Shown here: positions 1 through 64,000 of the stretch, piece by piece
Layout: each line of letters opens with the position of its first letter
How positions within the stretch are numbered: position 1 is the stretch's first letter
NCBI GenBank assembly: GCA_002189035.1
Contig: CM007991.1
Coordinates: 806,001-870,000 of the forward strand
DNA: 64,000 nt
DNA from: Utricularia gibba
Lineage: Eukaryota; Streptophyta; Magnoliopsida; Lamiales; Lentibulariaceae
Reading direction: 5' to 3'
Program-made: the position numbers and the translations under genes
Notes under the pieces: model-generated
What the model saw: only the letters and a program-made list of their open reading frames with translations
Databases searched by the model: none
What the model was told of the DNA's origin: nothing

Positions 1-120
1 TTTGTTGAATATTAATTAGGTTTATCTTCTACAGCTAATCAAGAATTGCACGTTCTCTGGGCATGTTAGTCTGACCTCAAACATCTTTTGATTGAATCTA
101 ATTTTTCTGATCTTCTGCAG

Positions 121-1532
121 CTCTTGAAATTGATTCCTCAAAGGATCCTACTACACCAACTGAAGCAAGCACTCCTGCCAGTGGTTCTGCTTTGGTCCTT
201 TCTGGAAAAAAATTCCATGGGTATGAAACTGCTAATCTTGGTTTATGCATTGTTTGATGTAGTGTCCTAGTATATTATCCAACTTGAATGAACACACGTC
301 ATGGACATACTCTATGTGAGGTTGATTTGGGATGGGAATCACGTGATCTTGAACGTTTGGTGAGAAGCTTGCGATTGTTTAAATGTGTATGATAATAGAT
401 AGTGTGTCATAGTTATTTTTCATTCAATCTTTTCTCCTAATACTAGCATCCACATTTGCGTGAGGCTACTGAGTGTTATCTGGTGACCAATATATTCACA
501 ACGTGTGCCTATATGCTCTCATTTGATATTTCTATGTTCCCTCTGTCTGAAGGTTGCAAATATTGCTTGGTTAAACGATTTACAAAGGTGTCTATAATTT
601 GCAGACTTAAGAAACACAAAGAAGGTTGTCTGTGTGCTATATGTGTGATGATGCGGCGTAGGCAGGAGAAAGAAGAGATTGCTCGCATGATGGGACAAAC
701 TGATAGTAGTGATGACTCACAAGGCATGGATACTAAGACTGAGGTACTTTTCAGATTGATCAATCATCTTCTTGCTCCAAGTAGTCTGGCAAAGTGCAAT
801 GGTTCACTATGGCTGATGTTATTCTTTAGTGCCCTTGGATGTGTGTAACTGTATTGCAGTTCATGTAGTGATGTTGTTTCCCTCATTTGATCCACGCATT
901 TTGTTTTAGGGCGTTTCACTTGGGGAAAGTCCCTTTGATGGCTACACCTCCTCAAACATTGGGAACTCCCCAGATGTGGATGCAGATCAAGAATTGAAAC
1001 TGGGTGACCTGAAAAGTATGTACAACAAGCAAAACACTGAAGTAACAACTTCAGGAAAACAAGAGGCATCTCATGATTTACATTTGAGTCGAAGGTCAGA
1101 GAATGCTATGAATAATCAAGAAAGATCTGGTGGCAGTTTATCCAGTGACGCTCAGAAAGAAACTGGAAAAAAGAGTGATGATGGAAGTCCAGCAATGGAC
1201 CATCAGAGGCCCAAGGTAAAACATGCTATATGTGTGAGTTAATGTTTTCTTTCCAACCGGCATCCAACATTTCCATGTGCATGCATACTGCATCAGAGGG
1301 ATAAATTTCTTTGGTTGTTTGCTGACAGGAACCGTTGGACAAAAACCAGAGAGCAAAAATGCTGGAGAATCTTAGGTATCTCGAGAATCCAGTACTCTTG
1401 GATCTCTACGGGACCTTATTTTCAAACAAACCCCAGTCTTTCTGGAATGGCCCTCACTCCTTGGTTGGTCATACGAAAGGTACCAATCGCAGAACATCTC
1501 TGGGTTCTGCCATGTCCTCCTTCCTCAAGTAG
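121..1532 (+). CDS. C-terminal part of a plant nuclear protein, possibly bromodomain-related (5' end outside window)
   Basis: Four exons join in frame: about 121-221, 605-743, 910-1215 and 1329-1532, each with AG/GT borders, ending in TGA/TAG-type termination at 1530-1532. The second exon encodes a lysine-rich stretch with a Cys-x-Cys-x-x-Cys cluster (GCLCAICVMMRRRQE). From memory a similar block follows the bromodomain in some plant bromodomain proteins, but no bromodomain lies in the window, so that link is tentative. The third exon is hydrophilic and rich in Ser, Asp and Lys. The last exon holds a conserved-looking block (NLRYLENPVLLDLYGTLF) and ends with SSFLK. The composition suggests a nuclear protein. 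The upstream exons are missing, so the start, full length and function cannot be given. Confidence 0.6.
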
Positions 1533-2150
1533 CTTCTTCGATCCCCATTGCTAATATTGTGCAGCAATGACTGTTAAAAAGTTTTCAGTTTATGAGTAGA
1601 TTTCATGAGCCTTCTGACATTAATGTTCTCCTGGAAGTTTGCTTACTGACTTCTTGAGCAGCTTGTATGTAGGTAGCATACACCACTTTCTACTCAAAGT
1701 CTAATTTTCAACGCTCACCGATGCATTTTGCATTATTGTTTCCCTGGAAACTTGCCTGCTTTCTTCTGACTTCAGGACAGGGGAAAGCGGCCAGACACTG
1801 CAGCTTTTAGGTTAACTTGGTAAAACATCGTAGAAAATGGGGGCATATAGGGAATTCATTCAAAATATATTTAGTTGACATTTATAAATGAAATAGAATT
1901 ATATAGATTTAATTTTTAAATTATATATTTTATTGTAAATTATTAAAATGACAAAGAAATTTGAATATTTGATTAAAATATTAGGAAAAAATGATATTTC
2001 CCAGACTAGCAAAGGTTAGGTTTTTTGAATCTCTAATAAATAATGTTTTTAAATTCAGTAAAATTTGGATTAAGCATTTTTGTTTACAGTCATCGTCCTC
2101 TATTAGAATAAGTACAAGACGCGGGGTTGTAACGCAATTTGAATAAATGC
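1533..2150. other. 3' UTR and AT-rich spacer
   Basis: The first ~300 bases are probably 3' UTR of the preceding gene. The rest is AT-rich DNA between two convergent genes, with no coding potential or repeat that I could recognise. Confidence 0.5.
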
Positions 2151-61381: not shown

Positions 61382-63283
61382 ATGGGAGCCAATCGACGGC
61401 GATTTGAGCCGATTGCGAGGTGCAGAGTCGATGGCAGGGGAAACCAAACGGTGGCGGCGGATTTAGACGGAACGCTTTTGAGATCCAGTAGCGCGTTCCC
61501 GTACTACATGCTTGTGGCGCTTGAGGCAGGAAGCGTGTTACGCGCGTTGATTCTCTTGGCGTCCGTGCCGTTTGTGTATCTTGTTTACTTGTTCCTCTCC
61601 GAGACAGTCGCGATCCAGACTCTCGTTTTCGTCGCCTTCGCCGGATTGAAGGTTCGCGATATCGAACTCGTCGCGAGATCGGTGTTACCGAAGTTTTACG
61701 CGGAGGATGTTCACTCGGAGTCGTGGAGAGTGTTCAATTCGTTCGGGAAACGCTACATTGTGACCGCGAGCCCTATAATCATGGTGGAGCACTTCGCGAA
61801 GAACTTTCTCGGCGCCGATAAGGTGCTCGGGACCGAATTGCAGGTCACGAAATCCGGTCGCACCACCGGATTCGTGAAACCGCCTGGAGTTCTCGTCGGC
61901 GAGTTGAAGAAATCGGCGATCGTTCATGAGTTGGGTCCCAATTCCCCCGATTTAGGGATCGGGGATCGTGAGTCGGACCACCACTTCATGTCCTTCTGCA
62001 AGGTAAGCCATAAGGGTTTCCGTAAATTCAATTTTCCGTACTTCACACAAATACTGCACTCCGTTTGGATCAAGTAATAGAAAAAAAACTAATCCTCCTC
62101 TAAATAGATTACGTAATAATCACGGCGCATCAATAATTAATTATTCTGATTATTTTGCGCTAAAAACCTTTAGTCAGTCAGAAATCGCTAGTTGCATGTG
62201 TTATCAACTAAACTAAAAAATAATAATATTATGTTTTTTTTAATGGGATCCTTTTCGAGAAATCATTAATGAGTTTTTAATAATATTCACTGTCATTTGC
62301 AGAGGAATTTCAGATTCCCATGCATGTCTCGTGGACGCATGCTTTTCCTCGTAAATCTCTAGTTTCTAGTTGTTACTAAATTTTGACATTTTTGCAGGAG
62401 GGGTTCGTGGTTCCGAATACCAAAGTTGAGCCACTTCTGAGAAGCAAACTTCTGTCTCCGGTGATATTCCACGAGGGTCGCTATGTGCAGCGGCCAACTC
62501 CGCTCGTGGCACTCGTCACATTCCTTTGGATGCCCATCGGAATATTTCTGTCCATCCTCAGAGTGTACCTCAACATCCCCTTTCCGGAAAGGATAGTTCG
62601 CTACAATTACATGCTTCTCGGGATCAAGCTCATCGTGAAAGGGAACCCGCCGCCGCCGCCGCGGCCGGGCAGGGTGGCGTTCTCTTCGTGTGCAACCACC
62701 GCACCGTCCTGGACCCTGTCGTTACGGCCGTCGCGCTCGGCCGGAAAATCAGCTGTGTCACTTACAGTATCAGCAAATTCTCGGAAATGATTTCGCCGAT
62801 CAAAGCTGTGGCGCTGTCCAGGGAACGAGACAAGGACGCGGCGAACATCAAACGGTTACTGGAAGAAGGGGATTTGGTGATTTGCCCTGAAGGGACGACG
62901 TGCAGGGAACCTTTTCTTCTCCGGTTCAGCGCTCTTTTCGCCGAACTCAGCGACCGGATTGTTCCGGTGGCGATCAACACGAAGCAAACGGTTTTCTACG
63001 GGACCACGACGAGGGGCTATAAACTTCTGGATCCATACTTCGTGTTCATGAATCCCCGGCCGACGTACGAGATCACGTTCTTGAACCAACTGCCCCGGAG
63101 TTAACCGTCGCCGGCGGGAAATCGCCGATCGACGTTGCCAATTATATACAGCGGGTGCTCGCCGGAACTCTGGGATTTGAGTGCACCAACCTGACGAGGA
63201 AAGACAAGTACGCGATGATGGCCGGCACAGATGGCCTCGTCAAATCCGACTCCGACAAGGAAATCAACGACAAGAACAAGTGA
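61382..63283 (+). CDS. Glycerol-3-phosphate acyltransferase, GPAT4/6/8 clade, with phosphatase-like domain; two apparent frame breaks
   Basis: Two exons (61382-62002, 62398-63283) would give 502 residues, a family-typical length, if two bases are added. The N-terminal HAD-like phosphatase domain has the active-site [11 protein letters not shown] and [12 protein letters not shown] motifs, both needed for the 2-monoacylglycerol-forming activity of the GPAT4/6/8 clade, which helps make cutin. Hydrophobic segments lie around [19 protein letters not shown] and [18 protein letters not shown]. The acyltransferase domain has [13 protein letters not shown] (motif I, NH-x4-D) and [20 protein letters not shown] (motif III, with PEGT). 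The frame breaks at GGG of 62667-62669, just before motif I, and at CCCC of 63093-63096, 63 codons before the true end TGA at 63281-63283. The start at 61382 gives the short N-terminus usual in the family. The enzyme acts at the ER membrane. Confidence 0.92.
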
Positions 63284-63849
63284 AAGAACGAAACAAATCC
63301 CATGGTAAAAATAAAACAATTAAAATTGAACTTGCATAAAATCCTTCCTTCCCTACTTCAAGCCAAAGAAAATGGGCATCAACACAAGAAAGCACTCTTT
63401 TACCCTTTTGGCAAGGATAGATGGATTTTGTTCTTGGGCAATATCTCTATTTAAAATAATGATGGGATGTATTTTATTCCCCTATTTGTGTCTAGTACAT
63501 GTTTGCAGTTGGCATTTGAGAGTTGTATCATTTCGTACAGCAATGAAAAACCGGCATGACAAAAAAAAAGCAAAGGAGAAACCATCGAAACAAGAGAGGC
63601 GTGTTGCTCTTGTATGTTGTCTCTGTGGTGTGCTGGTAATATGATATGACGCAGAAACAGCACAGCAGAGCATCCAGCTAGTTGAAGATGATGAGGAGCC
63701 CCACATGGGCAGCTGCAAAGCAATGCCCACCACCAACCCCTGGATCCTTGTGATTGATTGCACCCTCGCCTAATGAGGGTTGACGGGCTGCAACGATACA
63801 CCTTTCCTTTTGGAATCAAAATAAGCAGCGGTTTCCTACTGGGATGCCA
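63284..63849. other. 3' flank of GPAT
   Basis: 3' UTR-like DNA with no gene I can support. Short open frames on both strands lack protein features. Confidence 0.5.
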
Positions 63850-64000
63850 TCACTGAAGCCGGCGCAGCTGGAGGAGAGTCGATCGGAACTCCGTCCAGCC
63901 AATGTAGCCGCCGCCCCCCTCCATTCTACTTGTACGATAACCTTCTGAATGTCCCTGGGCTTCAAGCACCAGCGACGAAATAGGATGGAATCCGTGCTCA
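63850..64000 (-). CDS. Possible 3' end of a gene running off the right edge
   Basis: The minus strand is open from the window edge to a TGA at 63852-63850, about 49 codons. It includes GGGGYIGWTEFRSTLLQLRR, which could be real C-terminal sequence. No domain is identifiable in this length, and it may equally be a chance frame, so it needs the next contig part. Confidence 0.25.
   Translation of the reverse strand, partial: EHGFHPISSLVLEAQGHSEGYRTSRMEGGGGYIGWTEFRSTLLQLRRLQ

What the first reader, a model, noticed from the sequence alone, without database searches (positions are those of the whole stretch)
1..64000. Ten frame breaks in seven genes, each cured by one extra G or C in a G/C run
Seen directly: breaks lie at 3239-3241, 4480-4483, 4916-4918, 6677-6680, 20304-20305, 21754-21755, 27696-27699, 50265-50268, 62667-62669 and 63093-63096. 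Every one is cured by adding a single G/C at a run of two to four. The corrected exons then sum to whole codons and family-usual lengths wherever I could add them up (325, 437, 260, 158, 332 and 503 codons). The other well-resolved genes (kinase, isomerase, BAG, GRXS16, trihelix, GDSL, CAX, CP29) need none. One direction and one base class across unrelated genes is hard to explain by decay, so I infer homopolymer under-calling in the assembly.
Basis: partly seen in the sequence, partly recalled or inferred. Interest (0 to 1): 0.75.

Follow-up and report, generated by a model that had tools for sequence, protein, structure and literature searches.

The report
G/C-run undercalls in plant genome assembly
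The ten broken genes in this stretch are almost certainly intact in the plant: the assembly dropped one G or C from short runs of those letters, a known long-read error that recurs across this whole genome and makes good genes look dead.

Summary
All ten breaks lie at the stated places, all are -1 (one base short), and I reproduced the quoted corrected lengths.

Key evidence is one stretch assembled twice: C376:15001-25000 and C413:5398857-5408856 have no substitutions over 10 kb and exactly five gaps, each a single C or G missing from a C/G run in C413. Two of the five split a 341-codon frame that is open in C376.

A frameshift-aware survey of other gene families finds the same genome-wide: 24 of 27 frame events in good alignments are single-base losses. 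About 26.6 of 27 analysed losses fall on G/C runs, with risk rising steeply with run length; equally long A/T runs are almost untouched.

A whole-genome-duplicate copy of the window on C414 shows the missing base at three of the ten sites and the expected tail frame at a fourth. Third-position divergence continues past the breaks, so these genes are not decayed; a truly decayed HMGB copy at 56100-57000 looks different.

The genome fits the PacBio assembly of Utricularia gibba; leftover G/C-homopolymer indels after Quiver are published. The exact base is not forced at every site, and no reads were available.

The parts
3239..3241 (-). Break 1: GGG run, 5' end of a 2-oxoglutarate/Fe(II) dioxygenase gene (2150-3261, - strand)
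   Evidence: no in-frame ATG before the DIOX_N domain without the frame change; no duplicate copy found
4480..4483 (+). Break 2: GGGG run, end of exon 1 of a repeat-bearing gene (4246 or 4267 to 5625) with no Pfam match
   Evidence: frame logic only
4916..4918 (+). Break 3: GGG run in the second copy of an internal direct repeat of the same gene
   Evidence: First repeat copy (about 4710-4720) reads GCAAGGGGAAGG, this copy GCAAGGGAAGG
6677..6680 (+). Break 4: GGGG run near the 3' end of a fasciclin-like gene (5992-6765)
   Evidence: The C414 duplicate (L102) ends in the hydrophobic tail frame that the correction predicts
20304..20305 (-). Break 5: CC run in an exon of an ER-metallopeptidase-like gene (about 18180-22410, - strand)
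   Evidence: splice phase forces a frame change within the exon; Pfam silent on the fragment
21754..21755 (-). Break 6: CC run in the peptidase part of the same gene; A or G on the coding strand cures it equally
27696..27699 (-). Break 7: CCCC run at the 3' end of a PEBP-family gene (about 27680-28230, - strand)
   Evidence: PBP domain completed only with the frame change: 112.3 against 104.8 bits
50265..50268 (-). Break 8: GGGG run in exon 2 of a DnaJ (HSP40) gene (about 48880-50520, - strand)
   Evidence: C414 duplicate L103 has one base more
62667..62669 (+). Break 9: GGG run in exon 2 of a glycerol-3-phosphate acyltransferase gene (61382-63284)
   Evidence: C414 duplicate L101, open frame, has one base more
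63093..63096 (+). Break 10: CCCC run in the same exon
   Evidence: C414 duplicate L101 has one base more

Best explanation
The breaks are consensus errors of the assembly, not features of the plant's DNA. The long-read consensus step drops one base from G/C homopolymers, more often the longer the run, all over the genome; where this falls in an exon the frame shifts by -1. Shown: direction, base class, length dependence, genome-wide spread, and disagreement between two assembled copies of the same DNA. Inferred: that the platform is PacBio with a Quiver-type consensus, and that the plant carries the longer run at each of the ten sites.
For: C376 against C413: 10 kb, 0 substitutions, 5 gaps, all one C/G missing in a C/G run, all in C413; two of them break a 341-codon frame open in C376, residues 339/339 identical once the shifts are allowed. 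Survey of GRAS, HSP70, BAHD, UDPGT and exostosin genes: 24 of 27 frame events at 60% identity or more are -1. Allocation of the missing base: 26.6 of 27 events to G/C, rates per 1000 runs 0.3, 6.9, 29, 207 and 478 for original lengths 2, 3, 4, 5 and 6+, A/T near zero; 23 log units better than a base-blind model. C414 duplicates carry the extra base at 62667, 63093 and 50265 and the expected tail frame at 6677. Selection continues past the breaks: GPAT differences by codon position 6/2/55 and 5/0/17. Published precedent: 205 indels left after HGAP/Quiver, nearly all in G or C homopolymers (PMC4832174).
Against: No reads or transcripts were available. The platform and species are inferred. The surveyed loci were chosen for being broken, so absolute rates are inflated. 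The C316/C412 pair also shows missing A/T letters at a contig end, so the error is not purely G/C everywhere. C376 and C413 could be two alleles (a few substitutions exist elsewhere between them), though five run-length alleles with no substitution in 10 kb would be odd. Exact base unresolved at some of the ten sites.
Confidence: 0.96

Rival explanations
1. Genuine recent pseudogenes: these genes are decaying after duplication in a genome known for shedding genes, and 1-bp deletions in homopolymers came first.
For: A duplicate block exists on C414 and at least one gene in the window, the HMGB copy, has really decayed.
Against: Ten single -1 G/C losses with no accompanying stop, A/T indel or insertion; constraint continues beyond the breaks; near-identical Hsp70 genes have a -1 as their only lesion; the same locus is assembled with and without breaks. 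True decay here shows splice-site loss, changed conserved residues, stops and shifts of both signs (HMGB; GRAS copy L043).
Confidence: 0.03
2. The shorter runs are real and splicing removes or skips the broken stretch, so the mRNA reads through.
Against: Breaks lie inside conserved exons whose duplicate copies are continuous in DNA; in several families the two matching pieces overlap or abut, leaving no room for an intron.
Confidence: 0.005
3. The breaks are in the DNA and the frame is restored later, by programmed -1/+1 frameshifting or by insertion of a G or C into the mRNA, as in some organelle and viral systems.
For: Only that downstream frames stay constrained, which this would also give.
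Against: Sites follow G/C run length only; close copies in the same genome lack the break and one locus appears without it in another contig. No such system is known to me for plant nuclear genes.
Confidence: 0.005

Closest known systems
Residual G/C-homopolymer indels after PacBio HGAP/Quiver consensus (Streptomyces albus SM254, PMC4832174; Quiver weakness at long homopolymers, PMC4853030)
   Same: Single-base indels left in the consensus, nearly all in G or C runs, that break reading frames and go away with short-read correction in the published cases.
   Different: Here short runs (3-5 original letters) are hit too and the density is far higher, about 5 differences per 10 kb in the pair compared, against 205 in 7.2 Mb; correction by reads could not be tested.
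Gene-fragmenting errors in long-read assemblies in general (tools such as Kastor, PMC12007338)
   Same: Frameshifts and false stops in conserved genes due to the assembly.
   Different: Here restricted almost wholly to losses in G/C runs rather than homopolymers of any base.
Pseudogenes left by fractionation after whole-genome duplication
   Same: Broken frames in a genome with duplicate blocks.
   Different: One direction, one base class, no other lesions, constraint intact.

Membership tests
G/C-homopolymer undercall of a long-read consensus | Errors are single-base losses | tested here: met
   24 of 27 frame events at 60% identity or more are -1; all ten window sites are -1
G/C-homopolymer undercall of a long-read consensus | Losses sit in G/C runs, not in A/T runs of equal length | tested here: met
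   26.6 of 27 events to G/C in the EM allocation, base-blind model worse by 23 log units; 5 of 5 in the contig pair
G/C-homopolymer undercall of a long-read consensus | Risk rises with run length | tested here: met
   0.3, 6.9, 29, 207 and 478 per 1000 runs for lengths 2 to 6+
G/C-homopolymer undercall of a long-read consensus | Spread over the whole assembly, in unrelated genes | tested here: met
   Several families on many contigs
G/C-homopolymer undercall of a long-read consensus | Independent assembly of the same DNA disagrees at such runs only | tested here: met
   C376 against C413 over 10 kb
G/C-homopolymer undercall of a long-read consensus | High-accuracy reads carry the longer run | not testable with these tools
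   No reads held
G/C-homopolymer undercall of a long-read consensus | Sequenced on PacBio with a Quiver-type consensus | tested here: inconclusive
   Genome size, 516 contigs and a 6.82-Mb contig fit the U. gibba PacBio assembly described in PMC8333044; the genome paper is not held
Pseudogene decay | Mixed lesions: stops, insertions, A/T indels, splice-site loss | tested here: not met
   None with the ten sites in the rebuilt genes; present in HMGB and L043
Pseudogene decay | Relaxed constraint after the break | tested here: not met
   GPAT 6/2/55 and 5/0/17 differences by codon position; tested for GPAT, more weakly for DnaJ
Programmed frameshift or insertion editing | The break is present in the DNA and is mended in mRNA or on the ribosome | not testable with these tools
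   No transcripts or proteins; indirect evidence against from duplicate contigs and duplicate genes

The most novel reading that the evidence does not exclude
The shorter runs are really in the DNA and the plant restores the frame in the mRNA or on the ribosome at G/C runs, genome-wide. Transcripts were not examined, so this is not formally excluded for the ten sites.
Probability: 0.004. Interest if true: 0.97.

Novelty: not a real feature. Interest (0 to 1): 0.22.

Why it matters
The error is dense: about 15 GRAS genes on this assembly carry at least one such break, and so do conserved Hsp70 genes. Counts of pseudogenes, lost genes or truncated proteins taken from these contigs without short-read correction are suspect, and this genome is cited for gene loss and compactness. 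It also shows a read-free audit that works on any assembly: compare redundant contigs, and look for -1 shifts at G/C runs in conserved families.

Tried and rejected
C241 against C304 as a duplicate pair: they differ by many substitutions, so they serve only to show that both carry the same Hsp70 break. Exostosin and p450 tables: most splits there are short introns or low-identity matches and were left out of the statistics. Strict best-score allocation of the missing base: left about 7 of 25 events on lone A/T letters because a diverged homologue then decides the residue; the score-weighted version replaced it. Pfam on fragments around 20304 and 21754 and on the repeat-bearing gene: no family, so no support either way. 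The idea that the published truncation of U. gibba DCL3 (PMC8333044) is such an artefact: only three Dicer-dimerisation loci were found, best read as DCL1, DCL4 and a DCL2-like copy, so nothing here contradicts the published truncation, which its authors checked by RACE. The idea that HMGB is an eleventh artefact: rejected, since its acceptor site and conserved residues are changed.

Full report
What was checked. At each, the open frame continues in the frame expected if one base were missing.

Why closeness to a run proves little. Nearly every stretch of coding DNA has a GG or CC close by, and protein logic cannot place a break to the base. At 21754 an A serves as well as a G, and at 50265 and 62667 several bases serve. 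So the claim 'one base class' needed a test that allows for this ambiguity and for how many runs of each kind there are.

Genome-wide survey. The window is C3:806001-870000 of a 100.09-Mb plant genome in 516 contigs. Whole-genome HMM searches with the GRAS, HSP70, p450, BAHD, UDPGT and exostosin families list many genes that match in two adjacent pieces in different frames. I fetched these loci and intact paralogues and aligned them with a three-frame aligner with intron states written for the purpose. In alignments of 60% identity or more, leaving out one true pseudogene and one repeated contig, 24 of 27 frame events are -1; the rest are one +2, which equals -1 in frame, and a -2 and a +1 from one locus. 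Two Hsp70 genes 95-97% identical to intact copies have a single -1 as their only lesion.

Which base is missing. For each -1 event every possible one-base insertion within 36 bases was scored against the paralogue, and an EM allocation was made over original run type and length, weighted by alignment score and corrected for the number of such runs. Of 27 events, 26.6 go to G/C and 0.4 to A/T. Rates per 1000 runs are 0.3, 6.9, 29, 207 and 478 for G/C runs of original length 2, 3, 4, 5 and 6 or more, while A/T runs of three or more stay near zero although they are more numerous. A model blind to base class is worse by 23 log units. The loci were chosen because they were broken, so the absolute rates are inflated; the contrast is not. 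Several GRAS genes on different contigs break in the same place, around profile positions 131-150, where the codons hold runs such as GGTGGCCCCCCAAG.

The same DNA assembled twice. The short contig C376 repeats part of C413. Over one 10-kb stretch there is no substitution and there are exactly five gaps: CCCCC/CCCC, CCCC/CCC, GGGG/GGG, CCC/CC and CCCCCCC/CCCCCC, all shorter in C413. Two of them fall in a frame of 341 codons that is open in C376 and cut into pieces in C413, with 339 of 339 residues identical once the two shifts are allowed; the neighbouring open frame carries DUF3490. Other parts of this pair contain a few substitutions, so one contig is not simply a copy of the other. A second pair, C316/C412, shows ten gaps and one substitution in 4.1 kb at the end of C316, all gaps in C316, some in C/G runs but others in A/T letters, and ordinary allelic differences further on.

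The window's own duplicate. DNA searches show that the fasciclin, DnaJ, HMGB and GPAT genes of the window have copies in the same order on C414:2792958-2829660, a block that looks like a whole-genome duplicate. The GPAT copy has exactly one base more at both sites, the DnaJ copy one base more at its site, and the fasciclin copy ends in the tail frame that the correction predicts. That fasciclin copy has frame changes of its own elsewhere. Beyond the breaks, GPAT differences stay at third positions (6/2/55 between the breaks, 5/0/17 after the second), as in a gene under selection.

What real decay looks like here. The HMGB-like copy at 56100-57000 has lost its acceptor AG (ACAATG against ACAGTG), carries changes at conserved residues (DPNNPNRQPSAFF against DPNKPKRPPSAFF) and does not read through. 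The GRAS copy L043 has a stop and shifts of both signs. The ten sites show none of this.

Conclusion. The breaks are best read as consensus errors of the assembly. Leftover indels 'nearly all' in G or C homopolymers after HGAP and Quiver are on record for another genome (PMC4832174), and Quiver's weakness at long homopolymers for others (PMC4853030). The finding is correct and useful as a warning, but it is a known kind of artefact, not biology. Direct proof at the ten sites needs reads.

Noticed in passing
56100-57000 (-): HMGB-like gene copy that looks truly decayed: acceptor AG lost, conserved lysines and proline changed, frame not continuous, against an apparently sound copy at C414:2818650-2819750 (L104).
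   Followed up: partly
whole window; C414:2792958-2829660: Duplicate block of the window on another contig with fasciclin, DnaJ, HMGB and GPAT in the same order and other genes lost.
   Followed up: partly
27281-27501: Dispersed repeat with at least 38 further copies at 70-81% identity over the genome, next to the 3' end of the PEBP gene; nature unknown.
   Followed up: no
9902-10490 (-): Second fasciclin-like gene, close relative of the one at 5992-6765 in opposite orientation; it ends right after EMMR, where the relative reads on.
   Followed up: partly
8008-8023: A run of 16 C's survives in the assembly, so long C runs are not always shortened.
   Followed up: no
L105, L106, L107: Only three Dicer-dimerisation loci found in the genome (DCL4, DCL2-like, DCL1), in line with the published truncated DCL3 of U. 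gibba.
   Followed up: partly
L043 (C244:2105250-2106300): GRAS gene copy with a stop and frame shifts of both signs: a true pseudogene by the look of it.
   Followed up: no
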